From Hexactinellida sp. DTS-2022 (lineage: Eukaryota > Porifera > Hexactinellida): a DNA stretch of 64,000 nt. Under the pieces are notes generated by a model. The model had not been told where the DNA came from. It ran no database searches and saw only the letters and a list, made by a program, of their open reading frames with translations. The translations under genes and the position numbers were made by a program. The stretch covers positions 14,763,624 through 14,827,623 of the forward strand of contig JAPNXP010000002.1 in the NCBI GenBank assembly GCA_028753945.1, read 5' to 3'. This document shows positions 1 to 52,268 of this stretch, piece after piece (positions within the stretch are counted from its first letter, which is position 1; each line of letters starts with the position of its first letter).

Positions 1-1055
1 GTCTGTAGTGCTTCAGTGACTTCATTCCTGGGAGCGTTAGCAAATTCTTGAGCTATAATAGATCTCCATTTCTTAATTTGATATTTCATAAGTGTATCTG
101 GTATTGACTGTCTTTTGATGACTGGCTTGTTGGCACCTCTGGATGCAAAGTAGAGTCTGATGGCCTCGTGTCCCACTTCATCTTTGTGTTTATCTGTCAG
201 TTGCATCATTGCCTCGAACACATTCTTTGGTTGTAGGGTTCCGTCTCTGAGCATTGTCCAATCTCCTTTTACTTCTAGTTCGTTGTCTTCATATTTGTTC
301 TCTACATAAGTTATGACAGGCTCAATGTCAAGATAACATTTTGCTAACTCTTTTACAATAATTATCAGGCTATTTAATTTATCTTTGAAACTCCTTTTTC
401 CAACATCCACAACATGTGTCAGTATAATGAGGAGATTGGGTCTGACTTTGTCTATAATTTTCAGCTTGCTAAGAGCACGGAACATACGTACAACTTGTGA
501 GTTGTCCCCTACTATCCTGTTATCACTCGCCTTGATAGCAACCATTACAATACTGGGGTAACATTTGTATGCGATTGAGCCTAAGTATGGGTGATTTGAG
601 ATAAATTGATCGATCGTGGCCATATTCAGAATGTCTTGCTCCTCTCCTCTTGCGTCATTCCAACCTGGCATATCTATGAACCCAATTTGTAGATTAGAAA
701 CTCCCCAATCGTCACTCTCCATTGTCGCTACATACTCTGTGACAAGTTTTGTGTCAGATGCCTTTTCATCTGATATACTGATAACATCAAACCCGAACAT
801 ATGATTCAAAGATTGCGATTTCCCAGCACCAGTCACCCCGTACACAAATATAATAGCCTCATTACAAGATCTATGTGCTTTCAGACTGTTTCCTACCATT
901 TCCATTCCTCGATTTAATATCCCTTTTTTTGATAGCAAATATGCCTTAAATATGTTGTCTGGTAGCTCAAAATATTTTTCAATACTTTCACTGGTTATTA
1001 TAGAAGTCTCAACTTCCTCATCTGTTATTTCTAGAAAACCCAACTTTTCTGCCAT
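1..1055 (-). CDS. GTPase-MACPF family paralogue A (5' part, runs off the left edge)
   Basis: The reading frame is open from an ATG at 1055 to the window edge, about 351 codons with no stop. It carries the AIG1/GIMAP-like GTPase domain: P-loop GVTGAGKS, a DMPGW G3 box, and LTHV where NKxD would normally be. It is closely related to the gene at 1371-4802, which lies immediately upstream of it on this strand. Parts of the two genes are nearly identical, for example 541-795 against 4318-4572 and 1-290 against 3778-4067. Other parts, such as 300-420, are clearly diverged, so the pair looks mosaic. The MACPF and C-terminal parts would lie left of the window, so its tail type (Hint or CaaX) is unknown. 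GTPase assignment is secure; biological role is inferred only. Confidence 0.85.
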   Translation of the reverse strand, partial: MAEKLGFLEITDEEVETSIITSESIEKYFELPDNIFKAYLLSKKGILNRGMEMVGNSLKAHRSCNEAIIFVYGVTGAGKSQSLNHMFGFDVISISDEKASDTKLVTEYVATMESDDWGVSNLQIGFIDMPGWNDARGEEQDILNMATIDQFISNHPYLGSIAYKCYPSIVMVAIKASDNRIVGDNSQVVRMFRALSKLKIIDKVRPNLLIILTHVVDVGKRSFKDKLNSLIIIVKELAKCYLDIEPVITYVENKYEDNELEVKGDWTMLRDGTLQPKNVFEAMMQLTDKHKDEVGHEAIRLYFASRGANKPVIKRQSIPDTLMKYQIKKWRSIIAQEFANAPRNEVTEALQ

Positions 1056-1370: not shown

Positions 1371-2093
1371 TTATACAGAATTGAGCAACCACAGACAGCA
1401 CTTGTGTATGTGTGTGTTTGTGTCCATCTGGCGACTCAGCACACTCCCCGCACCCAACTTACATGCCACACGTACTGGTGTCAGCACACAGTGACCCACT
1501 CTATGCATACCAAACTGGTGCACCAGTCCACTAGTCACACTGCGACACACGCCACTCCACAGCCAGCTGCTGCTGCTGCTGTCTGATTGAGAGTGAGTAG
1601 AGAGATGACTGTACACACTGGCTGCTATGCCATCCACCACAATGAATCCGTTGTTGGTGAAGGGAGCGTAGTACCCCACCTGTGTACATGTGTGTATGTG
1701 TAGCACGGGCACTGAGATGAGTGTGTGGGAGTCTCCTCTCTCCCCCTCCTCCTTCCCATCCAGCTGCTGCTGCTGCTGCTGCTGCTGGGACAGACAGGGA
1801 GAGAGAAAGTGGATACTGTGTCCCACTCGCAACTGATCAGCTGGCACTGGTCTCCTCTGGTCTCCACTCAGGATCAGATGGCTAGCAGAGATGTGCAGGT
1901 GTCCGTGAGGATGTGTGATGTGGATGAATGTGGCTGTGATGTGTGTGTCTCGGTGTGCCCAGAGGTACACTCTGGAGTAGACAGGTTTGCCTGTAGTTGG
2001 ATGGATGGATAACACGTGGTCTCCTATCTTCAATTCATCCATCCTAACTCTCTCTCCTCCTCTCAACTCCACTCTTGCATTCCCTGGGAAACA
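1371..2093 (-). other. Hedgehog-type Hint domain of paralogue B
   Basis: Codes for residues 904-1143. The nucleophile Cys is residue 904, preceded by Ala. Hint position 72 is His and position 69 is Ser, matching the Thr/His pair of Hedgehog autoprocessing domains. The Asp that activates sterol in Hedgehog aligns with His 47. The tail after the Hint core is Ser-rich with scattered Cys. The module is about 98% identical in DNA to 5441-6172. Confidence 0.85.
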
Positions 2094-4802
2094 AGCAGGT
2101 TCTTCGTCTCCAGTTACAACTTGATCAACCAGAATATCCGCAAATTCATGTTTGACCTTCAAAGAATAATGCCCCTTTCCCACTTTTGTCCCAACACTTA
2201 ATATCTTTGAATGTAAACATTTGTTTTGTTTCTTATCCATGTAAATAATGACATCTCCTTTTCTTAAATCGCTTGCCAAGGCCATCATACTTACCTTTCT
2301 AGGAAATCCTTTAACCTGTTTTATTGTATGATTGCCCCCAATAAGCAATTCACCGTATTCATGTTCAATATGCAAATATTCCAATTCCTTTTCCTCTTCT
2401 GATGAATTAAGTTTAACAACCATTAAATATTTTATTTCCCAAGGATCTATGCACATTATAGTATCCCCAAACTCAACTCGACGGATCTCATTAGTATAAA
2501 AATTAAGGGGCTGACCTTGGATAATAGTGGCGTTTTCCGGGAACCCACCAGGTGCTTTATCTAGGGTTTCTGATTTATAAACCGATGAGATTGATTCTCT
2601 TCTTAAATGAGCATCACCTAGATTGTCGATCATGGATGGTAGTAAATGTATCTCAGTTAAAATTTCCTCTTGTAAAGTTGTTTCAAGGAGAACTTCAAAT
2701 ACAATGTCTCGTACGAATCCTTGGGAAGCATCTTTTACTTGGATACCTCTATGACTGTCAACAAGCGATACAAGTTGATAGATTTGTAATTGTTTAGAAT
2801 TTGTTGAGCGAAAAACATCCAAAGTTATAGGTTTCTCATAGAGAGAGATAGTCCATTGTTGCCATATCTGTGGAGTGATTGTGGTTAGAGTAAATTGACC
2901 AGGATAGTCACCGCCCCTCCAATTCAGGACCTGTCTCCCGATTGATTCAAACATCTGTTCTGCCTCATGAATGTCCTCACTGGCTAAAGATAAGGAAGCT
3001 GGATCATCTCCAGACTCTAACCTGTCAAGCAAGCTGTTGATGTACAAGGAGATGTGTTCCTGCACATACATGGCCTCCCTCTCTTCCATCTCCAACTCTC
3101 CCTCTACACACCCTCCACACTCACAACCAACAACCACCCAGTGTCCATACGTGTTGAGGAAGTCAACATACTCTCTCCTCACTAGATTCCCCTCTGCAAT
3201 GCCACTCTCGGGAAGAGCAGCCACTGCCTCCTTGAAGCCAGGACTGAGTTGAGACGCTAACAGCTGATGGTCAGATAGAATCAACTTGACTGTGTAGATA
3301 CTATAGATTATCTGGAATTGGTACTTAACGGGTATTTCTGTTGATGGTGAAGTTAGCATTTGGCCTGTCAGCTTATCGTGTGCAAAATCAGATTCACTCA
3401 ATCGCTTCCATTGCACTCGTCGTTTTTCCATGGGCTTAACTACATGCATGGACTTTGGTAACTTCACTCCTCTCTGAACATACCACTCACTGGACAGCTC
3501 CAGTGTAGGAGTGCGAGTCAGTTCGCCTGTCTCTGCATTCAGGCCATAGCCAATGTTGTGGAGAATGTTTGGGAACTCGTAGGGCTTCACTCCACAGCCT
3601 TCTACTAACGACTGATTCTCGATCAGTGAGAGTTGGTACGGAGCTAGTCTCTCTTGCACCTGGTTCAATGTCATGGACTGGAGAGAGTCTAACTGAGTGA
3701 GTAACCGAGCATTTAACTCAATCATAAGAGTAACCAGACTTCTCTCAGTACATATGTCAGGGTGACTGTGTGCATAGGTCTGTAGTGCTTCAGTGACTTC
3801 ATTCCTGGGAGCGTTAGCAAATTCTTGAGCTATAATAGATCTCCATTTCTTAATTTGATATTGCATAAGTGTATCTGGTAATGACTGTCTTTTGATGACT
3901 GGCTTGTTGGCACCTCTGGATGGAAAGTAGAGTCTGATGGCCTCATGTCCCACTTCATCTTTGTGCTTATCTGTCAGTTGCATCATTGCCTCGAACACAT
4001 TCTTTGGTTGTAGGGTTCCGTCTCTGAGCATTGTCCAATCTCCTTTTACTTCTAGTTCGTTTTCTTCGATTTCGTTATCCATGTACACGATTGTAGGCTC
4101 ACTATCCAAGTAGTTTATAGCTAATTCTCTCACAATTGTTGTAATAGTATCTAACCTTTTTTTGAACGACTTTATACCAACTTTCATTACATGTGTCAGT
4201 ATAATGAGGAGATTGGGTCTGACTTTGTCTATAATTTTCAGCTTAGTCAGAGCGCGGAACATGCGTACAATCCTTGAATTTTCCCCCACTAATCGATTAT
4301 CATTTGCGTCGATTGCAACCATTACAATACTGGGGTAACATTTGTATGCGATTGAGGCTAAGTATGGGTGATTGGAGATAAATTGATCGATCGTGGCCAT
4401 ATTCAGAATGTCTTGCTCCTCTCCACTTGCGTCATTCCAACCTGGCATATCTATGAACCCAATTTGTAGATTAGAAACTCCCCAATCGTCACTCTCCATT
4501 GTCGCTACATACTCTGTGACAAGTTTTGTGTCAGATGCCTTTTCATCTGATATACTGATAACATCAAACCCAAATAGATGGTTTAAGGATGATGTTTTTC
4601 CAGCTCCCGTTAATCCGTATACAAATATTATAGCCTCATTACAAGACCTATGCGCTTTCAGACTTTTTCCTACCATTTCCATCCCTCGACCCAACTCTCC
4701 TTCTCTGGCCAAGTCACGTGCTTCACGAAGATTGTTCGGTAAATTGAAGTATTTTCTCAAGCCCAGAACCGTTGATTCATTAGAACAAAGTTTCTCCGCC
4801 AT
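1371..4802 (-). CDS. GTPase-MACPF-pseudoHint-Hint protein, paralogue B
   Basis: Single-exon gene of 1143 codons. Residues 55-300 form an AIG1/GIMAP-like GTPase domain: P-loop G63-T70 (GLTGAGKT), G3 box D118-G121, and LTHV at 202-205 in the G4 position. Residues about 320-400 are helical. Residues about 400-720 look like a MACPF domain; the hallmark lies at 545-564 (Y-x-x-F-x-x-x-YGHW ... GG). Residues 753-903 resemble a decayed Hint domain starting GFPENA, with Gly where the catalytic Cys belongs. Residues 904-1143 form a Hedgehog-type Hint domain starting CFPGNARV, with the GD-VLS strand, a conserved His at Hint position 72 and the block GYYAPFTNNGFIVVDG. A polyGln run sits in a Hint loop. 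I infer an intracellular, membrane-acting GTPase whose tail is autoprocessed. GTPase and Hint calls are strong; the MACPF call rests on motif and length. Confidence 0.9.
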   Translation of the reverse strand: MAEKLCSNESTVLGLRKYFNLPNNLREARDLAREGELGRGMEMVGKSLKAHRSCNEAIIFVYGLTGAGKTSSLNHLFGFDVISISDEKASDTKLVTEYVATMESDDWGVSNLQIGFIDMPGWNDASGEEQDILNMATIDQFISNHPYLASIAYKCYPSIVMVAIDANDNRLVGENSRIVRMFRALTKLKIIDKVRPNLLIILTHVMKVGIKSFKKRLDTITTIVRELAINYLDSEPTIVYMDNEIEENELEVKGDWTMLRDGTLQPKNVFEAMMQLTDKHKDEVGHEAIRLYFPSRGANKPVIKRQSLPDTLMQYQIKKWRSIIAQEFANAPRNEVTEALQTYAHSHPDICTERSLVTLMIELNARLLTQLDSLQSMTLNQVQERLAPYQLSLIENQSLVEGCGVKPYEFPNILHNIGYGLNAETGELTRTPTLELSSEWYVQRGVKLPKSMHVVKPMEKRRVQWKRLSESDFAHDKLTGQMLTSPSTEIPVKYQFQIIYSIYTVKLILSDHQLLASQLSPGFKEAVAALPESGIAEGNLVRREYVDFLNTYGHWVVVGCECGGCVEGELEMEEREAMYVQEHISLYINSLLDRLESGDDPASLSLASEDIHEAEQMFESIGRQVLNWRGGDYPGQFTLTTITPQIWQQWTISLYEKPITLDVFRSTNSKQLQIYQLVSLVDSHRGIQVKDASQGFVRDIVFEVLLETTLQEEILTEIHLLPSMIDNLGDAHLRRESISSVYKSETLDKAPGGFPENATIIQGQPLNFYTNEIRRVEFGDTIMCIDPWEIKYLMVVKLNSSEEEKELEYLHIEHEYGELLIGGNHTIKQVKGFPRKVSMMALASDLRKGDVIIYMDKKQNKCLHSKILSVGTKVGKGHYSLKVKHEFADILVDQVVTGDEEPACFPGNARVELRGGERVRMDELKIGDHVLSIHPTTGKPVYSRVYLWAHRDTHITATFIHITHPHGHLHISASHLILSGDQRRPVPADQLRVGHSIHFLSPCLSQQQQQQQQLDGKEEGERGDSHTLISVPVLHIHTCTQVGYYAPFTNNGFIVVDGIAASVYSHLSTHSQSDSSSSSWLWSGVCRSVTSGLVHQFGMHRVGHCVLTPVRVACKLGAGSVLSRQMDTNTHIHKCCLWLLNSV
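1751..1790. repeat. CTG/CAG trinucleotide repeat in the Hint coding sequence
   Basis: A run of about eight CTG units on the plus strand encodes eight Gln on the minus strand, in the loop between the two halves of the Hint domain. The same tract, with the same length, occurs in paralogue C at about 5830-5869. Confidence 0.9.
2094..2546 (-). other. Degenerate Hint-like domain of paralogue B
   Basis: Codes for residues 753-903. The order of conserved blocks follows the intact Hint next to it: GFPENA opening, FGDTIMCIDP, EYGELLIGGNH, LRKGDVIIYM, then KVGKGHYSLK ... ILVDQVV. The catalytic Cys is replaced by Gly, so it should not self-cleave. Assignment is by block order and spacing, not by a profile search. 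Confidence 0.65.
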
Positions 4803-5440
4803 TATGTTTGTGAGTGATACCGTATACTATACTTTATTTATTCTTATATTATAACATATTTATTCAAAAGTTAATAGATCTATTTCATATCCATAATAAC
4901 CACTTGAGCCTACTCATTTCTTTACATTTGGGGAATTATAGGACATTTATCATCTGATTTAAAACTAATAATACTTTGCACTTTGTTAATATTTCTAACA
5001 CAAATTTATTGTCTATAGCGTCATACTTTTGCACTCGAGTCTGTGACCCTCACTTGTATTACAATCGAATTTATTTATATGCAGGCTGTATTTTGTACAA
5101 TAAAAAACAATGCACGTAGCACATAACATTATAATTTTGGGTCGGAACTCGGAAGATGTAAATATTTTTTTTCTTTGGTATTATGACTTGCCCTACAATA
5201 TTTCAAGTCTGTAGCTATTCTTGGTATTGTTATAATTGCCAAAATGTAAACTTGTATTTTTGTTCCAAGACTATTAATTTCCATGAGTTGAGAACTGAGT
5301 AACTGAAGCTAAATCTTATTGTTATTTATAACGACATATTTTAAATCACTCAGTAATCAATTATCCATTAGAAAAAAACAAATTTAATAAGATATTCGTA
5401 TTATCATAACGTGTTTTAATTAAGCCATTTTAACAAAGTT
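4803..5440. other. Intergenic spacer, AT-rich
   Basis: Lies between the ATG of paralogue B and the stop of paralogue C. It is AT-rich with no convincing coding sequence or inverted-repeat element. The similarity between the two Hint modules stops at about the stop codons and does not continue here. Confidence 0.5.
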
Positions 5441-6172
5441 TCATATATTCCTGTATACGTTGAGTAACCACAGACAGTACTTGTGTATGTGTGTGTTTGT
5501 GTCCATCTGGCGACTCAGCACACTCCCCGCTCCCAACTTACATGCCACTCGTACTGGTGTCAGCACACACTGACCCACTCTATGCATACCAAACTGGTGC
5601 ACCAGTCCACTAGTCACACTGCGACACACGCCACTCCACAGCTTGCTGCTGCTGCTGCTGTCTGATTGAGAGTGAGCAGAGAGATGACTGTACACACTGG
5701 CTGCTATGCCATCCACCACAATGAATCCGTTGTTGGTGAAGGGAGCGTAGTACCCCACCTGTGTACACGTGTGTATGTGTAGCACGGGCACTGAGATGAG
5801 TGTGTGGGAGTCTCCTCTCTCCCCCTCCTCCTTCCCATCCAGCTGCTGCTGCTGCTGCTGCTGCTGGGACAGACAGAGAGAGAGAAAGTGGATACTGTCT
5901 CCCACTCGCAACTGATCAGCTGGCACTGGTCTCCTCTGGTCTCCACTCAGGATCAGATGGCTAGCAGAGATGTGCAGGTGTCCGTGAGGATGTGTGATGT
6001 GGAGGAATGTGGCTGTGATGTGTGTGTCTCGATGTGCCCAGAGGTACACTCTGGAGTAGACAGGTTTGCCTGTAGTTGGATGGATGGATAACACGTGGTC
6101 TCCTATCTTCAATTCATCCATCCTAACTCTCTCTCCTCCTCTCAACAGCACTCTTGCATTCCCTGGGAAACA
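5441..6172 (-). other. Hedgehog-type Hint domain of paralogue C
   Basis: Codes for residues 961-1203. The nucleophile Cys961 is preceded by His. Comparing by eye with 1371-2093, I count about 15 mismatches and no gap over about 710 bases. The C-terminal few residues differ because the homology ends there. Confidence 0.85.
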
Positions 6173-9052
6173 ATGCTCCTTTGGTTTTGTGATCACTAGA
6201 TCGATAACCAAATAAGTACTTTTTGTTGATGGATAAAAACAACCAACATGTTGTTCAAGAGACAGATTTGTTATTTTGGTAAATTTAATCCTCATGTCCA
6301 GTCGATTACAGATGCAGATATAGTCTCCAACACTCAAAGATATTGCTCTAACAAAACCTTCTTTTATTTCATCATTATACAACTTGTAACGCATAATTAA
6401 TTGTTTGAAACCTACTGTTAACTTTCCTTCAACGAATGTAATAACAATATAATTATGCTCTCTTTCGTTATTTCCGGGATTAGTCATGATACGGGAAAAA
6501 GTAAAGTTATTCCTTATGGGACAGAAGCAAACTGCATTAACAGGATTGTCGCCAGCCTCTGCTATCCTTTGTTGCAATTGATTAAGTGTAACTTCCTCGA
6601 TTCTATTACTCTCATTTTCTTTTATTAAGACAACAGAAGAGCCTGGATACCCAACTAATGCTTTTCTGTAAGTGTTTGTGCTCGCTTGGTTGGAAGCATC
6701 TCTTCTAGTAGGCGGTGTGGGCGGAGGAATCGGTTCATTTTGTTTAATTTCACCGATATCGGGATTAGGATTCGCTGCATATGATAAGTTAGATCGCTGA
6801 AATAAGCCAGACTCATATAATGAACTGTTTCCAAAGGAATTATCACGATCTCTGTTTTCACATATAGGAAAGGGAAATAGACTACTGTTAATTGAAGGAA
6901 AACTAACGCTGGCTTTGAGATCATTTTCAATATTAGTTAGAGCCTTGTTTAACTCTCCACCTTTAACATGATCATAGCATTCTATCAAGTTCGATAATTT
7001 CATCATATTCCCTACGTTAGTTGGATCTAGGACGAGTGGAATACTGTACAAGCTTCCAACCCAGGTATCATGGATTCTGGAATTTAGATTCCCGATAGTC
7101 TCACAGTAAGGAGGAGCCCTACCACCAAAGAACTTTACCTTGGTATTATAAAATTCTTCAATTATATCTCGATAATCTTGGAGAAAGTCTTTGTTCATAT
7201 ACTCATCATTCCGAGAGCTATTTGAGAGGATAGACTCAATGCAATTCCGTAAAATAGGCTGTACAACCTTGCATCTCGATTCTTCTAACTTCAATTTAAT
7301 TGTTCCTTCTATACAGCCCCCACATGAAGTTTTAACTATAATAAAATGCCCGTAGTGGCCAAAAAAGTTTTTGTATTCATCATATATCGATTGATCTACT
7401 TGAGCATTTTGAAATTTGGGAGGGAGATTATTAATGGAGTCTTGTAGAGTTTGTTTCAGTTTGACATCTCTCGGATGTTTGGAATTAAAATAGATTTCGT
7501 AAACAATTTCTTTAATAAAAAATGTCAACTCAAACTCCCTATACTCCACGGGATAAATTACCTGACCCTCCTCAGACAAGCATGTGATGATCTCAGTCTC
7601 TGTTGAGATGATGGTGGAGAATTCTATTATTCGTTTTTCAGAATTATGAAACTTATTTACCTTTAAAAAAGATGGAATTTCCAATCCCTGCGAGATTTGA
7701 AATGTGTTGGGTACATCTACTATTTGTTGTTCTGAGGCAGTTTTGATATCACCATTGTCAATTATACAAGTAGTTAAGATACGCTCATAGAGAAAGGGAA
7801 AAACCATAGGGATAACTTTGAACAAATCAATGATAAGTGCCAATTCAAAGTCTTGCAAGACATAAGATTCTAGCTTGTATTGAACATCTGCTATATTTAA
7901 ATTAGCAAAGTCCTCTGCATTATGAAACGGACTATCGAGAAGTTCCGAAATCAATGGTCTTACTTGCTCTTTTTTACAATTTGGCATATTAGTTCCTACA
8001 TAATGCTCGATCATTTGAGTCACTTCACTGAGCCTGGTGCCAACTCGACTTCCTCGTATAATTAAGTTACGCCACTTTTGAATCGCTTTATCACTGACAT
8101 TAACAGATGTAACTCTTCCCTCCTCTACAGGTTGGAAATTTTTTCGGGATTCGAAAAATAATCTGACAACTTCAATTCCTACTTCATCTTTATATGTATT
8201 CATTTGTTCGATTAAACTTAGGAATACGTTTAGCGGTTGTTTTGTACCATTCTCAACATCATTTTCATCATCAGGAAGTATTGTCCAATCACCATCTTCC
8301 TTCAATGGAGGGTTACGATTCTCGACAGTATTTTCAACCCAGACGAACGGTGGTTCAAACCCAAATTCTTTTCTACATAATCTTTGGTATAATTCTTGTT
8401 TTATCTTTATCATTTTTATAGGTATGGACATTGTATTTGTCATCACAATAACAACATTATTCCTTCTCTTGTCTATTATGTGCAATTGCCTTATTGCCTT
8501 TAGCATAAGCACGGCAGGACTAGCTAAATCATTGGGTCTGTTGTCGGTAGCAGATACGATTATCATTATTATGTTCGGGTAGCACTTGGGAGCGCCCCTC
8601 CCTAAATGCGGGTGTTCAGCAATGAATTTCTCGATTGTTGCCATGTTAACGGCCTGTGTGTACGTACCTCCCCCATCCCCCCACCCGGGGACGTCGACAA
8701 AACTAATTTTAAGATTGCTTACTTCCCAGTTCGCACTAGGCAGACAGGACACGTAGTACACCACGTCTCGAGTGCAAGAAGACTCAGATGAGACACTGGC
8801 CAGGTCCATGTCGAACAAGTGGTTCAGAGTAGAGGACTTACCCGCTCCACTCTGACCGAAAGTGAAGATTATAGCTTCATTCATCGCTCTGCCTATTTCG
8901 ATACTAGACTCGACTAAATAGAGTCCTTTGTGCATAAAGTATTTGCGCTTAGCCGTAGCCAGCTCCATGGGAGTTGAAGGTAGTCTCATTTCGCAACCCG
9001 TTGGGATGTAGTGCTCATGCTGTTGTATTATTTCTGGAGAGTTAGTCGCCAT
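5441..9052 (-). CDS. GTPase-MACPF-pseudoHint-Hint protein, paralogue C
   Basis: Single-exon gene of 1203 codons with the same order as paralogue B. P-loop is G66-S73 (GQSGAGKS), the G3 box is DVPGWGD, and the G4 position reads MTNTM. The MACPF hallmark (YGHF ... CGGCIEG) lies at about residues 560-585. A Pro-rich linker (PIPPPTPP) precedes a decayed Hint at residues 801-960, which begins GYPGSS. An intact Hint runs from Cys961 to the end (CFPGNARV). Outside the intact Hint the protein is strongly diverged from B, whereas the Hint itself is nearly identical, pointing to recent sharing of that module. The start ATG follows an AT-rich upstream region. Function is inferred: a GTP-regulated membrane-acting protein with an autoprocessing tail. 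Confidence 0.9.
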   Translation of the reverse strand: MATNSPEIIQQHEHYIPTGCEMRLPSTPMELATAKRKYFMHKGLYLVESSIEIGRAMNEAIIFTFGQSGAGKSSTLNHLFDMDLASVSSESSCTRDVVYYVSCLPSANWEVSNLKISFVDVPGWGDGGGTYTQAVNMATIEKFIAEHPHLGRGAPKCYPNIIMIIVSATDNRPNDLASPAVLMLKAIRQLHIIDKRRNNVVIVMTNTMSIPIKMIKIKQELYQRLCRKEFGFEPPFVWVENTVENRNPPLKEDGDWTILPDDENDVENGTKQPLNVFLSLIEQMNTYKDEVGIEVVRLFFESRKNFQPVEEGRVTSVNVSDKAIQKWRNLIIRGSRVGTRLSEVTQMIEHYVGTNMPNCKKEQVRPLISELLDSPFHNAEDFANLNIADVQYKLESYVLQDFELALIIDLFKVIPMVFPFLYERILTTCIIDNGDIKTASEQQIVDVPNTFQISQGLEIPSFLKVNKFHNSEKRIIEFSTIISTETEIITCLSEEGQVIYPVEYREFELTFFIKEIVYEIYFNSKHPRDVKLKQTLQDSINNLPPKFQNAQVDQSIYDEYKNFFGHYGHFIIVKTSCGGCIEGTIKLKLEESRCKVVQPILRNCIESILSNSSRNDEYMNKDFLQDYRDIIEEFYNTKVKFFGGRAPPYCETIGNLNSRIHDTWVGSLYSIPLVLDPTNVGNMMKLSNLIECYDHVKGGELNKALTNIENDLKASVSFPSINSSLFPFPICENRDRDNSFGNSSLYESGLFQRSNLSYAANPNPDIGEIKQNEPIPPPTPPTRRDASNQASTNTYRKALVGYPGSSVVLIKENESNRIEEVTLNQLQQRIAEAGDNPVNAVCFCPIRNNFTFSRIMTNPGNNEREHNYIVITFVEGKLTVGFKQLIMRYKLYNDEIKEGFVRAISLSVGDYICICNRLDMRIKFTKITNLSLEQHVGCFYPSTKSTYLVIDLVITKPKEHCFPGNARVLLRGGERVRMDELKIGDHVLSIHPTTGKPVYSRVYLWAHRDTHITATFLHITHPHGHLHISASHLILSGDQRRPVPADQLRVGDSIHFLSLCLSQQQQQQQQLDGKEEGERGDSHTLISVPVLHIHTCTQVGYYAPFTNNGFIVVDGIAASVYSHLSAHSQSDSSSSSKLWSGVCRSVTSGLVHQFGMHRVGQCVLTPVRVACKLGAGSVLSRQMDTNTHIHKYCLWLLNVYRNI
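6173..6652 (-). other. Degenerate Hint-like domain of paralogue C
   Basis: Codes for residues 801-960. It starts GYPGSS with Gly in place of the catalytic Cys. The final strand block, VGCFYPSTKSTYLVID, lines up closely with VGYYAPFTNNGFIVVD of the intact Hint. The usual His of the second motif appears as Gln (LTVGFKQLIM). It is far more diverged from its counterpart in B than the intact Hints are from each other. Confidence 0.65.
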
Positions 9053-9337: not shown

Positions 9338-11644
9338 TTAAAATATCCTACAAGGAGAAGGTTTCGACTTTGCAAATTCACTCGCTAACACTCTGGAGGT
9401 AATTTGAATGGGAATGTCAAGCGTTTCTATTTCTTGTATACTATTTACAGTATTTCTATCAGGGTCATCGTATACCAAAAAGTACATATCATTCATAGGT
9501 ATTTCATTTTGAAATTGTTCCTCAAGTGCTCTTAGAAAGGAAATCGCCAGTTCTGTATCCCATTTACTCAAAAGAGCAGAAATTTGACAAACGTGTACAA
9601 TATTTTCTAATAAAATAAACTTTTTACATAGATTATTTTTCCATTTGTCCCAATCTGTTGAATTTAAATCTTTCAGCTTTGAAGCATGGTAGCATTCTTC
9701 ACCCCCACTCCATACGATAGGTGAATTAAGCAATTTATCAAATAAAGACATTGAATATGAGTTCATGCCTTCAGAATAACTTTGGTATGATAATTTCCCG
9801 TCTTTAAGTTCCTCGAAATGCATCCATAATAACTTTTTCAAATCCAGACTTACTCTAGAAAAATCATCTTTATTCATATTTGGACCCAAAGTAAAGTCGA
9901 CAGATCCGCTAATTTCTCCCCCAAAGCTCACACCAAGCACACACTGAGTGCCATACTTGTCTATAAATGAACTGTAAGAGTCTGAGAAATTCCTATGAGG
10001 ATGATCGGACACGTATTTAGGAAGAGAGTTAACTGTCTTAACAAATGCATTTTCCATTTGTTTGCAATTAATATTTGATAGATCATAGGCAATATTGAAC
10101 AACTCATATTGTATTGCGAATGAAATGGTGCCTTTGCCATTAGAGAACATACTCCATTTCGCCAAATTAAAGCGACAATGAACAAGCAGTCTCCCTCTGG
10201 AAGAGTAATGTGTATTCTCGGGAATATGGGTCCCTATCTCATAGCAATACTTCAACTCATCTATGGAGATAATCGGGAACTTGAGTATATTTTCACGTGG
10301 AAATACCCCACAGCCTAGCATATGAAAACTTAAACAATCTAATGGCTTAACTTTGAATAGTTCGAACATGAGAATTCTCTCCTGCCTGTTCATGGAGAAA
10401 GGGAACAATTGTAGGTTAACCTCCTCTATGTTCTTGCTACTCAGATCCGCTGCGCTAACTAACTGTACTTCTTGCAAGCGATGCATGAGTGGTAAAATCG
10501 TTTCATAAGCCAGAGATGACAAGTGAGGAAATCTTTTCGCTGCAATACAAGCATTAATGCATTTATTAGCTTCGCAGTCAAAGCTAAGATTAAACTCAGA
10601 CTCAAAAATCTTTTTCCATTTATAAATATCAGGTTTGCAGTCGATTCCCTTAAAAATACCCTCAGAAGACCCTAATTTTCTTTCAGCATAAATTTGTATA
10701 CTCTTTCTATTATCAAAAAGTAATCGAATTGCCTCGACTCCAATTTCATCACCTGATTGTTTCATGAGAGAAATCATAGTATCAAACAGATTTAGTGGCT
10801 GTTTAGTAAGATTTGGCAACAGTGTCCAGTCACCACGTGTTTTAAGATCCTCAAGTTCATTATCAATAAACACAATTGGAAAACTGACACCAAAATATAA
10901 TCTTGCCAAGTTATCAACCAACTCGAATTTTCTCTTCAGATTTTCAGAAAATCTAGATAGAGGACGAAGTGACATTACATGTGTTAGCACTATCACTACG
11001 TTGGTCCGAACTTTATCTATTACTGATAATTTGGAGAGCATTCTTAACATTTTAGCAAATTGAGAATTTAAATCGCCCATTCTATTGTCGTTCGCACTAA
11101 TGACTATCATTACAATGTTTGGGTATAGTCTGTTTTGGGAGAAAGGAGAGCGGAGAAATGGATGATTCGAAAAAAAATTATCAATATTAGCGAGATTCTC
11201 AATATCTTTCTCATCAGAAGCAGTGTCACCGAAACCGGGCGTATCTACGAATCCTAACTCCAATTCTGTCACATTCCAATGGGTACTATCCATGGTTACT
11301 ACGTACTCAATAACATCCTTAGTACACGACTTGTTGTCAGATGTTGGAATTAGTTCGGTCTTAAACAAATGATTGAGAGTGGATGATTTGCCATGGCCTG
11401 TTATCCCATATAGGAATATCATCGCTTCATAGGGATTTCGGTAGGCTTTGAGGCTGCTTCCTACTAGCTGACTCGCCTGGTGGTAAGAACATTTATTTAT
11501 CAATTTATTTAAATCATCAAGGTTTTTCGGAAGACACATAGTGGTATTTGATCGCAGCATATCAAATGTATTGGAACGAGGATGAAGACTTATGGGGAGT
11601 GAACCAGCTTTGCCTAATTCTTGGTCAATATTAATTCTTGCCAT
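9338..11644 (-). CDS. GTPase-MACPF protein with CaaX box, paralogue D
   Basis: Single-exon gene of 768 codons; the start chosen is the first ATG (MARINID). P-loop G80-S87 is GITGHGKS, the G3 box is DTPGFGD and the G4 position is LTHV. The MACPF hallmark lies at about residues 555-580 (FIDKYGTQ ... FGGEISG). There is no Hint domain. The protein instead ends SKPSPCRIF, a CaaX box (CRIF) expected to be geranylgeranylated in the cytosol, so the mature protein would sit on the cytosolic face of a membrane. It lies between paralogues C and E on the same strand. The GTPase call is strong, the MACPF call good, prenylation predicted from the motif. Confidence 0.88.
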   Translation of the reverse strand: MARINIDQELGKAGSLPISLHPRSNTFDMLRSNTTMCLPKNLDDLNKLINKCSYHQASQLVGSSLKAYRNPYEAMIFLYGITGHGKSSTLNHLFKTELIPTSDNKSCTKDVIEYVVTMDSTHWNVTELELGFVDTPGFGDTASDEKDIENLANIDNFFSNHPFLRSPFSQNRLYPNIVMIVISANDNRMGDLNSQFAKMLRMLSKLSVIDKVRTNVVIVLTHVMSLRPLSRFSENLKRKFELVDNLARLYFGVSFPIVFIDNELEDLKTRGDWTLLPNLTKQPLNLFDTMISLMKQSGDEIGVEAIRLLFDNRKSIQIYAERKLGSSEGIFKGIDCKPDIYKWKKIFESEFNLSFDCEANKCINACIAAKRFPHLSSLAYETILPLMHRLQEVQLVSAADLSSKNIEEVNLQLFPFSMNRQERILMFELFKVKPLDCLSFHMLGCGVFPRENILKFPIISIDELKYCYEIGTHIPENTHYSSRGRLLVHCRFNLAKWSMFSNGKGTISFAIQYELFNIAYDLSNINCKQMENAFVKTVNSLPKYVSDHPHRNFSDSYSSFIDKYGTQCVLGVSFGGEISGSVDFTLGPNMNKDDFSRVSLDLKKLLWMHFEELKDGKLSYQSYSEGMNSYSMSLFDKLLNSPIVWSGGEECYHASKLKDLNSTDWDKWKNNLCKKFILLENIVHVCQISALLSKWDTELAISFLRALEEQFQNEIPMNDMYFLVYDDPDRNTVNSIQEIETLDIPIQITSRVLASEFAKSKPSPCRIF
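11636..11644 (-). other. Start of paralogue D (start choice)
   Basis: The reading frame is open a few codons upstream of 11644, but without an ATG. The first ATG at 11644-11642 gives MARINID and is the likely start. Confidence 0.6.
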
Positions 11645-11922: not shown

Positions 11923-14175
11923 TCATAGAATAACACACATGGAAGTAGTGTTTTCTGATTTAGCAGCCTGGGCGGCTGATTTCCGAAAATCTTTAGGTAT
12001 AACTTTAGATTCAATAAAATCCCATTCGTGTCTACCAGGATTCTCAGATACAGGGAAAACATGGCTTTCTAACCCCAATTCCTGTTCTTGTGCTTGAATA
12101 GCCTTGTTTATCGATTGATACTTCTCAGTATTCATTCTAGCGATTATTTTTTGTATACTTACAAGACCTAGCATTGTCTGTAAAGGAATAAACTTCATGC
12201 ACAGGGTATCCACCCAACAGGACCAAAATATTGGGGTGAGAGTTCTAAAATTGGTTGAGTGGAACTTATCTTCACCACCTTTCCATGTGATTGGTAGATC
12301 ACACAATTTCTCGAACATTTCAATTGAATTTTCATCGATAATTGAGGGATAATCTAAACGGGTAAGATTAGATCCCTTCTGCAAAGTTTCAAAGAATAAT
12401 TTGAGCAACATAGATATTTTGTATGTTTCGCCGTTATCTTCGATAGAGCCTTCGGGGAGGTCAACAAATCCGTTGATTTCTCCCCCATAGCTCACACCTA
12501 GCGCACATCGAGTGCCGAACTTATCAATAAAACTCTTGTACGCATCTGTGGCTATCTTGTTGGTTTGATCAGAATTTGGCAGAGAGTTTATTGCTTTAAC
12601 GAATGTGTGATCCATTTGTTGACCAGTTATTTTCTTAAAATCAATAGAGACATTAAATAACTCGTATTGCACTGCGAAAGAGACAACGGGTTTACTGGAA
12701 GAAAATCTAGATAATCTGACCCAATTAAAGTTGCAATTCACGAGGAGACTCCCTTTGGAGTTGAACTGAGAATTTTCGGGAATGTGGGTTCCCAACTCAT
12801 AACAATATTTCAATTCTTTTGCGGAAATTATTGGAAGTTTTGTTTTTTCTAAAGAAATATATCCACAACCCAATCTATCGATATGTTTTAGGTTCTCCAA
12901 AGGTTTTACCTTGAACAGTTCAAACAAAAGGATTCTCTCGAGTTTGTTGAGTTGAAATGGAATTAGGATCCTATTTATTTCCTCAATATTCTTACTCTTC
13001 ATGTCCTGTACTGTGTTTAAGCTAACTTCTTGCAGCTTGTGCAGGAGAGGGAGAATCGTTTCGTACGTAAGAGATGACAATTGAGGCAAACGTTTCTCTT
13101 CCACACAGGACAGAATTAATTTGGATACCTCACTGTCAATAAGAACTGTGAATTCAGTTGCTACGATATTCGTCCATTTCTGGATGTCAGCAGTAGTACT
13201 GTTGTTTAAGTGAGACTCGCAATCTCTCCTATTCCAAATCTCAATGTCTTTGCCCTGATCGAAGAGCAATCGCACTGCCTCCACCCCCATCTCATCTCCA
13301 GATAGTTTCATGAGAGCAATCATTGCGTCGAACAGATTCAGAGGCTGCTTGGTGCCATCTGGTAGCAGCGTCCAATCTCCACACTTCTCGAGCTCTTCCT
13401 CCTCAGCTAAATTCTCAACCACAACGACAGGCGGATCCACGCCGAGATGAAGTCGCACTAGGTTCTTTAGATTTTTAATTTGTTCATCTCTCTTCTCGGT
13501 ATACTTCTTTGGAGGACGGATAAACAAGGCACATGTAAGCACAATTATAACATTCGGGCATATCTTGTCTACGATACTCAGTTTGGACAGCACTCGGAGC
13601 ATTTTGGAAAGTTGAGAGTTAAATCCTAGAATTCTGGGGTCCCCTGCTCTTACGACTATCATAACAATGTTTGGATAGAATTTCAAATGAAGTTGTTGCG
13701 AATCGAGATAAGGATGGGAAGTTAGAAAATGCTCAATATTAGCGAGATCGTTTATGCTATTTCCATTGGTGTCGCCCCAGCCAGGCGTGTCAATGAATCC
13801 TATGTCCAGTCCGGTTACATTCCAATGGATACTATTCATCGTTGTCACGTACTCTATTACCTTATTGGTACTGGATTTAGAATCAGATGTGGGAATGAGT
13901 TTAGTATTGAATAAATGGTTTAGTGTGGTGGATTTACCAGCACCTGACAGTCCATAGAGAAATACCATTGCTTCGTATGGGTTCCTATGAGCCCTCAGGC
14001 TGCGAGAAATCAGTTCACTCGCCTTGTGGTCACAAGATTTCAACAGTTCTTTAACTTCACTTGGTGTCTTAGGAAGAGGAATGACTATGTTAGTTTTTTT
14101 CCTTTGGCTCTTTGATTCAGGTCGAACAAGTAGAGAGGATCGTACTATGGTATCGTCCGACATTTCGAAGGCCAT
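11923..14175 (-). CDS. GTPase-MACPF protein with CaaX box, paralogue E
   Basis: Single-exon gene of 750 codons, the most upstream member of the array. P-loop G75-S82 is GLSGAGKS, the G3 box is DTPGWGD, and the G4 position reads LTCAL. The MACPF hallmark is at about residues 545-570 (FIDKFGTR ... YGGEING). It ends TTSMCVIL, a CaaX box whose final Leu predicts geranylgeranylation. It is the closest relative of paralogue D in layout and ending. There is no Hint remnant. An alternative ATG four codons downstream (MSDDT) is also possible. Role inferred as for the other members. Confidence 0.88.
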   Translation of the reverse strand: MAFEMSDDTIVRSSLLVRPESKSQRKKTNIVIPLPKTPSEVKELLKSCDHKASELISRSLRAHRNPYEAMVFLYGLSGAGKSTTLNHLFNTKLIPTSDSKSSTNKVIEYVTTMNSIHWNVTGLDIGFIDTPGWGDTNGNSINDLANIEHFLTSHPYLDSQQLHLKFYPNIVMIVVRAGDPRILGFNSQLSKMLRVLSKLSIVDKICPNVIIVLTCALFIRPPKKYTEKRDEQIKNLKNLVRLHLGVDPPVVVVENLAEEEELEKCGDWTLLPDGTKQPLNLFDAMIALMKLSGDEMGVEAVRLLFDQGKDIEIWNRRDCESHLNNSTTADIQKWTNIVATEFTVLIDSEVSKLILSCVEEKRLPQLSSLTYETILPLLHKLQEVSLNTVQDMKSKNIEEINRILIPFQLNKLERILLFELFKVKPLENLKHIDRLGCGYISLEKTKLPIISAKELKYCYELGTHIPENSQFNSKGSLLVNCNFNWVRLSRFSSSKPVVSFAVQYELFNVSIDFKKITGQQMDHTFVKAINSLPNSDQTNKIATDAYKSFIDKFGTRCALGVSYGGEINGFVDLPEGSIEDNGETYKISMLLKLFFETLQKGSNLTRLDYPSIIDENSIEMFEKLCDLPITWKGGEDKFHSTNFRTLTPIFWSCWVDTLCMKFIPLQTMLGLVSIQKIIARMNTEKYQSINKAIQAQEQELGLESHVFPVSENPGRHEWDFIESKVIPKDFRKSAAQAAKSENTTSMCVIL

Positions 14176-23000: not shown

Positions 23001-26000
23001 CTGATGACGTATTGAATGTGAGTGGACACAGACTGGGAACAGCTGAGCTGGAATCTGCTCTCGTGCAGCACTCAGATGTAGTGGAAGCTGCAGTGGTTAG
23101 TTGTATGGGTTCTAATTAGATATTATGTTAAGTGGAATATTTCGTGGGTTCAAAGTAATCATAGCATTTGTAGCTTTGTTTTATATTCGTTTTGTAATTC
23201 AAACTAAAAACACGCTACAATTAATGAAAATCAAATTAAATTTTAATTTTGTGTAAAATATTTTCTCTTTTATCTTAAAGCTTGTCCATTTTTGTGGATT
23301 TTTTTCTCTCCCCGTAAAAATAGCATCTCGATATGAAACACTTGCTTTGGTATATGTGTGTAGGTTGCTGGAAAACATGAGGTGAAAGGAGAGAGTATAT
23401 ACTGCTTCGTAACTCTAAGACAGGTGATTTATTTTATCCATATTTGCTATATCAACATTTCTTATAAGCTTTATATTAATTTTCTTCCTCTTAAAATGGA
23501 CAACTTAACGATAGCATTTTCCACATGATGTTTGAATTATGATCTCCTATGCAATCTTGTTTCGATTTACATATTAATTTGGTTAATTACACCACTTCCT
23601 CTTCATTAATGAATCCAGATGGATATGTACCTAATTGCATTTATTTGCTGGCCCTACGGGATTGGTACCTTTTGATTAACAATAATCATACTACGTACTT
23701 ATAATCGATATATTAATAAAACACAATCGTTCTTTGTGTGTTTATTTGTTTAAGTAATTGTTTGAACGTTTGTTTGCTAAATTCGACGTATTAAATTAAG
23801 AAATACAGTCAGGTCTGCTTATTATGAACAAGATTTCGTCTGCTTAATATGAAGATTTTTTATTTTGAACAAACCCTATGCCCGGCGGGCCGGGCCTATG
23901 GTCCCAATTTAACAACTTACATAGGGTTTGTATTAAGTTGAGTTCGCTTATTATGAAGTCTCTCTATTATGAACACAATTTTTGGTCCCTTGAATGTTCA
24001 TAATAAAAGAACCTGACTGTATGATTGTCTGAAAAGATTGCAATAAATGTTATATAATTAATTAATCCAATTCTACCTAAGATATCTTTTACTCTTCATT
24101 TTTAGTAGACTTTGAAATAATTTAATCCTTTGGTTATGTGCTAATTGATTAAACTTTCATAATGTATGGTTTTGATAGGGGCGGCAACTTTGTCTATTAC
24201 AAGTAATTCTAATTATACCCAAGCAATGGCTTGGAAATATAGCTTACAAGATTACACCCTTTCTATTAAATGGGTTTGCCAGTAAGTCTAACCACGCCTT
24301 AAAAATATTGTTAATTTCACATCACTTTTATTCAATTAACAGAAAGTAATTTGTAATATTATTCTCTAATTATTAATTAGTGTGACTATGTAATTGAAAT
24401 GCAATACTGTATGTGTGTGACTAGTACACTTGGATGCAGTTGGTTTCACTGTCACAAGAGGTAATTATCTGTTCATCTCCGCCTAGCACAACGCCGATAG
24501 GACGATACAGCGCGTCTCTCCCGAGCACCTGTTTCAGACTGTAGTCGTTTGAGAATATCTTTATGCACTGCCCCTTGGGATCCGGGATGATAACATTTCC
24601 GTTGCTATCCAGTTCGAAGAAGAACACAACCGACATCTGCTTTTCTTGTCCTGTGAGCGGCAGGCTCCACAAATGCCCCCCCTCCATTGTGAACCCGTGC
24701 ACCCTATTGTCGTCCCTCGTCAGTACGTATATCTGTCCGCCGCGTATCTTTATGTCCGTCGGGAAAGTTAGGTGTCTCGCGCCAAAGCTCCACAGAGGCT
24801 GGAGCTCAGTATTGAATACCTGAATGCGATTGTTGTTCGTATCGCACACATACACTCTGCTGTTGATGACGTATAGGCTAGTGGGCGATGCCAGCTGTCC
24901 CTCTCTGTTTCCTGCGTTAGTTATCCTCTCAACACAGGTGCCGCCTCTGCGGAACTTGAACACCCCGTCCAGACTCACGTCTGTCACGTACACGTAGTTA
25001 TTCGCGTAGAACACGCCCGAGGGCTCCTCTAGCTCCGCGTTCCCGATCTCCCGGCAGAAGTTCCCCTCTAGGTTCAGCACCTCTATGCGACTGTTGCCGC
25101 TGTCCGCTATGTACAGCTCGTTACGCTGCACATCCACGGAGACTGCGCGTGGCGCTTTCACCTCGCACATCCCGACTCCCCTCTTGCAGGTGCTAATGAC
25201 TGGCGTGGTGCGGTTGATGTACTGAGGCAGAACCTCTATTAGCGAGATGCCAGTTACCTCCTGCTGTAGCTTAGACTTATAGCAACGTATGTCCAACAGT
25301 TCCAGCTTCATAACCTCGATGCGTTTGTCCCTCAGCTCGTTAATGTCCCTCTGTATGCTGAGGCGGTGCTGCTCCTTCTGGGCAGAGAGGAGATTGCTGC
25401 TCATATTGGACAGCATGGACTCTTTGGCGAACTCAAGCTGATATATCGCGGTGTTCAAATCTATGTTTTGTTTATTTTTATCTTTTATTTCTTCGAGCTG
25501 CGCTAGCATTGCTTGTTTTCTGTTTTCTACGAATGTTATTATTTCCTGGAAAGTATGGATAATGTACTCTTTCAGTCTAACGTATGCTTGATCGAGATTT
25601 TCCTGTGCATTCGCCATATTATGTGTATTTGTGTTGTATTATTGTTGCAAGATTATTCAGAAATTTTATAATTCTCTTTCTCTTTCTGTATTTATTAGCT
25701 GCAAGCTACTGCCTACATTGCACTAACGTTGGTAGTAGTATTAGTAGTTGCAAATGCTATGAATTTCAACATGCATTATTAGTTTATTTATCCTATAACA
25801 GACTATTAATTACATAGTTAATTAGTTTGAGATGTCTGTGACATGAGTTGCTTGGCTAATTAAATGACTTGCTTCTTAATTATTTTATTGTAGATCTTAA
25901 GTAATCATCCCATTTATGAACACATCTCCGATATCGGAGATTACCAGGAATTTATTATTATTACTGCTTTAAAGAACTATTATTTCATAGGGAGCCGAAT

Positions 26001-45925: not shown

Positions 45926-46346
45926 CCGAGCTAGAAACAATACTATTCATTAGCAGTCACTCGGCATTTATAATTGTCATAAACACAACCAGTTGAACTA
46001 AGCCATTCAATAATGACAACTCTACACTTGCTACGTGTTGGACCGTATTTTCACAAAGAACTGGTATCAAACTAAAAGGTGACAGGATATTTGTTATTGT
46101 TTAATTACAAGTGTAATGTTATTGGAATCCACATTCAAGCGAATCTATTGTTCTGCTACATTTGAGGGGAATATTTGTACTGAATTAATGTCTATGTTTG
46201 TAACTTAGCACTCAATATAGGATTATACTATTCATTCAGTAAATGCTGTTGAATCAAAACTTTATAGTAGTCTCTATGCAAACTCACTTGCAATCATGAA
46301 TAAAAGTGAATTTTAATAATTAAAATGGAAAATACTATTTTTGAAA
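45926..46346. promoter_or_regulatory. Shared upstream region of MGAT5-like and roadblock genes
   Basis: The two genes are divergent with 421 bases between their start codons, so this is likely to hold both promoters. No coding sequence; no motif called. Confidence 0.4.
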
Positions 46347-51377: not shown

Positions 51378-52268
51378 CGCACACACACACACACACACTG
51401 CACTTATTCTATAGACTCATTGTTCGATTAATAGCACCATACATCACTAACTATATTATAAGTGACTGTTATGCTATTTTAACTAGACACTAACTAGCAC
51501 AAATTAGTAATGTTACAATAGAGAAATAATCAACTACGTATAGTAAATTGTTATCACATCTTTCTGGAAAATAAATACCATTACAACTAATTGTACATTT
51601 TAGTTATACTACACTAGAATGTCAAATTAATTATGAAGGTTTTATTCTTTATTTTGTAATTTCTAATGTTTTTGTGTTGATGCCTGATGGATTGGCTTGT
51701 TCTCGATTATATTTATTACATTCCTGCTGAGTTACTAACTATGCTTGGTGATGTAATCACAAAATCAATTTCATTCATATTCTTATCTTCTACTCATCTG
51801 ATATTCGTCTTCCTCAATGGATTGATATGTTAAATGGAAAATGATTTAGAAAGAGATAATCAAGAAAATTGGAGATGAAAAAAGAAGTTTTATGGATTTT
51901 CTATATTTGCATATCTTGGCCTGTGTTTGGCCTTATAATTTATTTAGTTCATTAATCACTTCTCAATGTATTTACAATGGCGAGACTTCCATGTACAGTA
52001 AGATTGGTATCAACAAAAGTGATTTCTCTTAAAAGAATAAATTCGCCTATTCGCCTATTAGCATACATTTTCTGTGGAAATGCGATTTGGTATTAAGCAA
52101 GCCTGTATTTAGAATTGTAAGGGAATCCTTATTGAGTGTTTATGAACTTCTATAAAGAGATTTGTTTTGCAAGTAGATATTATTTATAAATAATATGTGT
52201 ATATATATATTAATTATTTAATAATGTACATTTTTATAATTTTTATTAGCGATCTTGCTTTCTCATCA
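51378..52268. other. AT-rich intergenic region
   Basis: Starts with a (AC)n run at 51379-51400 just after the MCM7 stop. The rest is AT-rich with no gene or element that I can support. Confidence 0.5.

What the first reader, a model, noticed from the sequence alone, without database searches (positions are those of the whole stretch)
1371..9052. GTPase-MACPF-Hint fusion proteins: an apparently new domain architecture
Two complete single-exon genes join an AIG1/GIMAP-like GTPase, a MACPF-type pore-domain signature and a Hedgehog-type Hint domain in one chain. I know of no described protein with this order. MACPF proteins insert into membranes; AIG1-type GTPases switch or assemble on membranes; Hint domains self-cleave and can attach a lipid. 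Together they suggest a membrane attack or remodelling protein that is GTP-gated and processed at its tail, possibly in immunity.
Basis: partly seen in the sequence, partly recalled or inferred. Interest (0 to 1): 0.92.

Follow-up and report, generated by a model that had tools for sequence, protein, structure and literature searches.

The report
GTPase-perforin-Hint proteins of glass sponges
A glass-sponge-like genome carries a family of proteins that join a GTP switch, a perforin-type membrane-attack domain and a hedgehog-type self-cutting tail, while sister genes carry a prenyl-lipid signal at the matching spot, which suggests that these are lipid-anchored intracellular membrane-attack or remodelling proteins.

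Summary
Two intact minus-strand frames (1371-4802, 1143 aa; 5441-9052, 1203 aa) encode GTPase - MACPF - Hint - SRR proteins. Profiles and predicted structures support each part: Toc34/GIMAP-type GTPase, perforin-type MACPF, hedgehog Hint. Of 59 homologues, 57 carry Pfam Hint and 38 align over 90% or more; every named one is from the glass sponge Oopsacas minuta.

New points. (1) A dead Hint precedes the live one: Gly for the catalytic Cys in 43 of 43. (2) The live Hint keeps Cys and the TxxH His, but its general-base Asp is His in 71 of 71 ungapped rows, the swap made in the engineered D303H hedgehog, which is active on more sterols. (3) The two Hint-less neighbours end in CaaX boxes, as do 15 of 15 kept members of their clade, behind a linker motif that also precedes many Hints; Hint and CaaX look like alternative lipid anchors. 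(4) Hints are homogenised within contigs.

AIG1-GTPase + Hint fusions are known; MACPF between them was not found in the library searched. Lipidation, pore formation and immunity are inferred.

The parts
1371..4802 (-). Gene A, 1143 aa: GTPase - helical linker - MACPF - dead Hint - live Hint - SRR, single open frame
3813..4742 (-). Gene A GTPase (about residues 21-330), P-loop GLTGAGKT, Toc34/GIMAP-type fold
2712..3527 (-). Gene A MACPF domain (about residues 426-697)
   Evidence: (below cut-off)
2103..2546 (-). Gene A dead Hint (residues 753-900), Gly at the catalytic Cys
1605..2093 (-). Gene A live Hint (residues 904-1066); Cys904, His950 at the D303 position, His975 of TxxH
1374..1556 (-). 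Gene A SRR-like helices with H-x4-P-x-R (H1104)
5441..9052 (-). Gene B, 1203 aa, same architecture
8063..8983 (-). Gene B GTPase (about residues 24-330), P-loop GQSGAGKS
   Evidence: MMR_HSR1 1.7e-6; boundaries approximate
6908..7765 (-). Gene B MACPF domain (about residues 430-715)
   Evidence: MACPF 3.2e-6, above cut-off; boundaries inferred from gene A
6182..6652 (-). Gene B dead Hint (from Gly801, GYPGSS)
   Evidence: by alignment; not in the hhalign set
5684..6172 (-). Gene B live Hint (from Cys961)
5444..5635 (-). Gene B SRR-like region; Q at the H of the HPR motif
1381..2094 (-). Hint cassette, 97.9% identical over 714 nt to 5460-6173, starting at the catalytic Cys codon
5460..6173 (-). 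Partner of the homogenised Hint cassette
9338..11644 (-). Gene C, 768 aa: GTPase - MACPF, no Hint, ends CRIF
9341..9352 (-). Gene C CaaX box CRIF
11923..14175 (-). Gene D, 750 aa: GTPase - MACPF, no Hint, ends CVIL
11926..11937 (-). Gene D CaaX box CVIL
3..1055 (-). Gene E, GTPase part of a further paralogue, cut by the window edge; 84% aa identity to gene A over 327 residues

Best explanation
These are cytosolic, lipid-anchored MACPF proteins under control of a septin/Toc34/GIMAP-type GTPase. Shown by sequence and predicted structure: the domains, their order and conservation, Hint active-site residues with an SRR-like region, no hydrophobic N-terminal signal in the four complete window proteins, and a CaaX box in place of the Hint in two sister genes behind a matching linker. 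Inferred: the live Hint makes a thioester at its Cys and passes the upstream chain to a sterol (or a similar lipid alcohol), shedding the Hint-SRR tail and leaving GTPase-MACPF-(dead Hint) tethered by its C-terminus to a membrane from the cytosolic side; the CaaX sisters reach the same state by prenylation. GTP binding and assembly of the GTPase would then cluster the MACPF domains, which insert into or deform the membrane, most likely as a cell-autonomous defence module.
Against: No biochemistry, expression or localisation data. The residue before the live Cys is seldom Gly, unlike hedgehog (10 of 71 rows). The first SRR histidine of the HPR motif is replaced in 44 of 70 rows, gene B included. 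In tandem-Hint proteins the linker motif lies before the dead Hint, not the live one (27 vs 1 of 43). The CaaX swap is one clade, probably one event; 6 Hint-less proteins of two other lineages have neither Hint nor CaaX; and P0071, a shorter relative of genes C and D that ends before the tail (680 aa), has no CaaX and was left out of the tree. Six tandem-Hint members have Ala for the P-loop Lys. Some MACPF proteins (astrotactin-2, among the matches) are not known as pore formers (recalled).
Confidence: 0.5

Rival explanations
1. The Hint is an autoinhibitory cap: it self-cleaves by hydrolysis or with a small nucleophile, without lipid transfer, and release of the tail activates the MACPF part.
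For: Hint active-site residues kept; the -1 residue and the SRR histidine often differ from hedgehog; dead Hint retained as a possible docking domain.
Against: SRR Pro and Arg conserved and the profile match runs through the SRR; the sister clade has CaaX boxes at the matching site, which points to lipidation rather than removal; CaaX members have no cap.
Confidence: 0.2
2. A membrane-remodelling or scaffolding protein of normal tissue, for example in the syncytium of glass sponges, with a MACPF domain that does not form pores.
For: Glass sponges are syncytial (abstract start of PMC5684314 in the listing); astrotactin-2 is among the structural matches; recognisable counterparts across contigs.
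Against: Paralogues on one contig have a median N-part identity of only 25-30% in 10 of 12 contigs, a diversity more typical of defence families (established knowledge); the best MACPF matches are mostly pore formers.
Confidence: 0.2
3. The Hint behaves chiefly as a gene-conversion cassette that spreads over the tandem array; its biochemical role is minor.
For: Hint identity between paralogues exceeds that between best N-part matches in 38 of 47 rows; the window pair is 97.9% identical from the Cys codon on.
Against: Cys and TxxH His are invariant also in diverged single-Hint members whose Hints are only 36-41% identical to the nearest Hint on their contig; proximity in tandem arrays explains conversion without a selfish role.
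Confidence: 0.08
4. Assembly or reading-frame artefact joining neighbouring genes.
For: None found; transcripts were not available.
Against: Single open frames with full-length homologues on other contigs, some annotated for Oopsacas minuta in NCBI.
Confidence: 0.01

Closest known systems
GmGIN1 of the fungus Glomus mosseae (passages of PMC2362128)
   Same: AIG1-like GTPase followed by a bona fide Hog domain, no signal peptide
   Different: No MACPF domain is mentioned in the passages seen; described there as a single gene
AIG1-Hint proteins of the snail Biomphalaria and CARD-AIG1-HINT proteins of lancelets (passages of PMC7053062, PMC12373286)
   Same: Immune-type GTPase with C-terminal Hint, expanded family, no signal peptides in the snail set
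   Different: No MACPF described in these chains in the passages seen; the window GTPases do not reach the AIG1 cut-off
Hedgehog Hog domain (Hint + SRR)
   Same: Fold, catalytic Cys, TxxH His, SRR Pro/Arg
   Different: No Hedge signalling domain; general base Asp is His; -1 residue seldom Gly; no hydrophobic N-terminus
Perforin, complement C6-C9, MPEG1, Mpf2Ba1, GNIP1 (MACPF)
   Same: MACPF fold with helical clusters beside the sheet
   Different: Here in a chain with a GTPase and, in four window proteins, without a hydrophobic N-terminus
Toc34/GIMAP/septin GTPases
   Same: Fold, P-loop, DxPG; some GIMAPs and Toc GTPases are membrane anchored (recalled)
   Different: No Pfam AIG1 hit above cut-off in the window; carries MACPF and Hint
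Tandem AIG1 gene cluster of Aphrocallistes vastus, 38 of 50 genes on one scaffold single-exon (section 6 of PMC10282587)
   Same: Glass sponge, tandem, largely single exon, GTPase family
   Different: MACPF and Hint are not mentioned in the main text; whether these are the same genes was not tested

Membership tests
MACPF/perforin family (PF01823) | Pfam profile above curated cut-off | tested here: inconclusive
   met by genes B, C and D; gene A 16.3 bits vs 21.5 cut-off, not met
MACPF/perforin family (PF01823) | MACPF fold with helical clusters beside a bent sheet | tested here: met
MACPF/perforin family (PF01823) | Oligomeric pore or membrane insertion | not testable with these tools
   needs liposome or cell assays
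Hedgehog-type Hint/Hog domain | Pfam Hint above cut-off and hedgehog fold | tested here: met
   genes A and B; gene A
Hedgehog-type Hint/Hog domain | Catalytic Cys and TxxH His | tested here: met
   Cys 73 of 73; His 71 of 71 ungapped; the T position is S or T
Hedgehog-type Hint/Hog domain | General base Asp303 | tested here: not met
   His in 71 of 71 ungapped; the D303H variant of hedgehog is active (PMC9163320)
Hedgehog-type Hint/Hog domain | Sterol recognition region with H-P-R motif | tested here: inconclusive
   P 67, R 60, H 26 of 70 rows; gene A has all three, gene B has Q for H
Hedgehog-type Hint/Hog domain | Sterol transfer activity | not testable with these tools
   needs biochemistry
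Hedgehog protein | N-terminal Hedge domain | tested here: not met
   one search lists no Hedge domain; N-terminus is GTPase-MACPF
AIG1/GIMAP family (PF04548) | Pfam AIG1 above curated cut-off | tested here: not met
   gene C 22.9 and gene D 20.5 bits vs 27; not listed for genes A, B and E; some homologues carry it in the precomputed column
AIG1/GIMAP family (PF04548) | Toc34/GIMAP-type G domain fold | tested here: met
   Toc34 ranks above GIMAP
CaaX prenylated proteins | C-terminal C-a-a-X | tested here: met
   genes C (CRIF) and D (CVIL), 15 of 15 kept in the clade; prenylation itself not tested

The most novel reading that the evidence does not exclude
Glass sponges evolved a family of self-lipidating, GTP-switched, cytosolic perforins. 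A natural D303H-type hedgehog Hint, which should accept a wide range of sterols, cuts its own protein at a membrane and leaves it sterol-anchored; in a sister clade a CaaX prenyl box has replaced the Hint at the matching cysteine; in the tandem-Hint clade the original Hint died (Cys to Gly) and a second Hint, kept alike within each array by gene conversion, was added behind it. Sterol transfer would thus be an interchangeable membrane-anchoring device outside hedgehog signalling, in an intracellular membrane-attack system.
Probability: 0.3. Interest if true: 0.9.

Novelty: new variant of a known kind. Interest (0 to 1): 0.74.

Why it matters
Protein cholesteroylation is known almost only from hedgehog (recalled; PMC7242414's abstract start says much the same). 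A family in which a hedgehog-type Hint and a CaaX box occupy the same place gives an evolutionary argument that Hint lipidation is a general anchoring device, and a direct test of it. The natural His at the general-base position offers an enzyme for testing why that swap widens sterol use. A MACPF domain driven by a GIMAP/Toc-type GTPase would be a new design for intracellular membrane attack, in an early animal lineage whose immunity is little known.

Tried and rejected
Chance match or fused gene model: rejected. AIG1 as family name for the GTPase: not adopted, cut-off not met in the window. A recent whole-gene duplication as cause of the near-identical Hints: rejected, as the rest is about 28% identical in protein. 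Purifying selection alone as cause: rejected, since paralogues beat best N-part matches in 38 of 47 rows. 'All Hint-less members have CaaX': rejected, 6 do not, nor does the short P0071. Viral fold library: matches to proteins named MACPF, AIG1 or Hint of giant viruses and phages; no row of the 50 shown is named for all three; not pursued. Pore-forming strength of the helical clusters was not computed.

Limits of my counts. Searches used references that leave out the start Met, so residue numbers there are one lower; one search took gene C from an internal point (763 aa; the ATG at 11644 gives 768), and so did; alignments A1 and A2 hold it without its first Met. In one search the script's labels 'H1' and 'H2' were wrong for 18 of the 43 tandem-Hint proteins (a text pattern missed them); one search shows by alignment that all 43 carry the Gly of the dead Hint. 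One search kept 94 of 108 sequences; 14 short or partial ones were dropped. The Hint pattern counted 71 proteins: it included P0102, a fragment without Pfam Hint, and missed 8 with Pfam Hint (P0074, P0083, P0086, P0088, P0090-P0093). The linker motif was chosen after looking at the tails, then counted with shuffles and control stretches. A first pattern gave 10 of 15, 9 of 30 and 10 of 43; the other pattern gave 10 of 15, 24 of 30 and 32 of 43, with 0 of 43 before the live Cys of tandem proteins. A 499-nt '100%' match is an overlap of my own two extracts. The -1 residue tally mixes in the 15 CaaX proteins, whose Cys the aligner put in the same column; I use the listing instead.
Full report
What is there. 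The low end of the window holds five minus-strand paralogues in a row: gene E (3-1055, cut by the window edge), gene A (1371-4802, 1143 aa), gene B (5441-9052, 1203 aa), gene C (9338-11644, 768 aa) and gene D (11923-14175, 750 aa). A protein-against-DNA search with residues 1-760 of gene B found these five and no further copy in the window. The finding concerns genes A and B. Other window genes (sortilin, PUS10, a family-18 glycosyltransferase, MBT and NHL repeats) fit an animal genome, and gene D is 68% identical to LOD99_14043 of the glass sponge Oopsacas minuta.

The order is conserved. Gene B found 59 homologues, 57 of 59 with Pfam Hint and 34 of 59 with Pfam MACPF, at 26-86% identity; 38 of 59 align over 90% or more of the query. 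Gene D found 25 rows; a profile found 63. The named ones are all Oopsacas minuta. LOD99_14043 and LOD99_14044 are Hint-less relatives of genes C and D, and 14045-14047 carry Hint, so a similar array probably exists there.

A dead Hint in front of the live one. In tandem-Hint proteins the stretch between MACPF and Hint aligns to the live Hint (hhalign probability 99.5, E 2.4e-23, 27 sequences given). At the place of the catalytic Cys all 43 have Gly. The midpoint-rooted tree places the 43 in one branch (support 0.87).

The live Hint looks active. Cys is kept in 73 of 73; the His of TxxH in 71 of 71, with two more rows gapped. At the general-base position (hedgehog D303, D46 in Hint numbering; mapping from the alignments) the family has His in 71 of 71. 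The review PMC9163320 (passages read) says that D303H hedgehog keeps structure and activity and gains activity on coprostanol (over 200-fold) and epicoprostanol (over 300-fold). Whether His is common at this place in other non-hedgehog Hog domains was not tested. The SRR motif H-x4-P-x-R (PMC7906309, passages) is whole in gene A; over the family P is kept in 67, R in 60 and H in 26 of 70 rows. Against a plain hedgehog copy: the residue before the Cys is often Ala, Ser or Thr, and Gly in 10 of 71 rows.

CaaX in place of Hint. Gene C ends CRIF, gene D CVIL, and all 15 kept members of their clade end in C-x-[IL]-[LFI]. P0071, a 680-aa relative whose frame ends before the tail, has no CaaX and was dropped from the tree. 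Of the 71 proteins that the pattern called Hint-bearing, three have Cys at -4 (CRNV, CYSS, CKRT), and of the eight Pfam-Hint proteins that it missed two do (CITK, CIEK); none of the five has an aliphatic residue at -2. Eleven to sixteen residues before the CaaX Cys lies a motif R..A[ASTGV] (15 of 15; shuffles mean 0.89, maximum 6). It also lies 15-20 residues before the live Hint Cys in 12 of 30 single-Hint proteins (shuffles 0.93, maximum 7) and 11-18 before the dead-Hint Gly in 27 of 43 tandem-Hint proteins (3.54, maximum 10), but before the live Cys of only 1 of 43 of these; control stretches upstream gave 1 of 15, 0 of 30 and 3 of 43. The motif was picked by eye, so these counts are descriptive. 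The simplest reading: one ancestral linker leads to one C-terminal modification site, served by a Hint or by a CaaX box; in the tandem clade the Hint at that site died and a new one stands behind it. Limits: the CaaX clade is probably one event, and six Hint-less proteins (P0058, P0059, P0073, P0094-P0096) have neither signal.

Concerted evolution of the Hint. Genes A and B share 97.9% of 714 nt from the Cys codon onward while residues 24-712 of gene B are about 28.6% identical to gene A. Over 241 codons from the Cys on, 17 differ (the last being gene A's stop), 6 of them synonymous. Across 47 rows, the Hint is closer to a paralogue on the same contig than to the best N-part match on another contig in 38; the N-part shows the reverse in 46. 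The nine exceptions include the diverged single-Hint group P0053, P0054, P0055 and P0075.

GTPase. Of 94 aligned proteins, 86 keep GxxxxGK[ST]. Of the 8 that fail, 6 (P0011, P0015, P0020, P0024, P0030, P0051) have Ala for the Lys and form one group in the tree; P0010 and P0045 are gapped there. Five of these six keep a live Hint at full length; P0051 ends soon after the Cys.

How it may work. With no hydrophobic N-terminus in genes A-D the chain is probably cytosolic. I infer: the GTPase switches or assembles; the Hint passes the chain to a sterol at a membrane; the shed tail leaves a C-terminally anchored GTPase-MACPF; clustered MACPF domains then insert into or bend the membrane. The CaaX sisters reach an anchored state by prenylation. 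Defence is the likeliest purpose, from the many diverged tandem paralogues, but nothing here tests it.

What is known. AIG1-type GTPase + Hint or Hog: GmGIN1 (PMC2362128, passages), Biomphalaria (PMC7053062, passages), lancelets and some fungi with CARD (PMC12373286, passages). The Aphrocallistes vastus genome paper (PMC10282587, section 6 read) describes a tandem cluster of largely single-exon AIG1 genes and mentions immune-gene expansions; a word search of its main text found no MACPF, perforin or hedgehog, and in the passages shown 'hint' means gene-prediction hints. A word search of the Oopsacas genome paper (PMC10280926) found no hint, hedgehog, MACPF, perforin or GTPase. Searches for MACPF with Hint domain, AIG1, GIMAP, hexactinellid or sponge listed no paper whose title or abstract start shows the three together; of the papers listed I opened only PMC12373286, which holds the words but, in the passages read, for separate proteins; the other three listed were not opened. 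The library is open-access only.

Noticed in passing
3-1055, minus strand: Fifth paralogue cut by the window edge: GTPase part 84% identical in protein and 89% in DNA to gene A, much closer than A and B are to each other in this part, so a more recent duplication or conversion.
   Followed up: partly
homologues P0011, P0015, P0020, P0024, P0030, P0051: One group of tandem-Hint proteins has Ala for the P-loop Lys (GVSGTGAS and similar): probable pseudo-GTPases; five of the six keep a full-length live Hint.
   Followed up: partly
   Followed up: no
24421-25617 and 60092-61288, minus strand: Two single-frame NHL-repeat proteins, both 398 aa and collinear but only 30% identical: an old duplicate pair about 35 kb apart.
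   Followed up: partly
43703-45940, minus strand: Glycosyltransferase family 18 (MGAT5-like) protein with a weak F5/8 type C match behind the catalytic part (E 9e-4, below cut-off).
   Followed up: no
52197-52988, plus strand: 263-aa hydrophobic frame without a Pfam match at 0.01; looks like a multi-pass membrane protein by eye.
   Followed up: no
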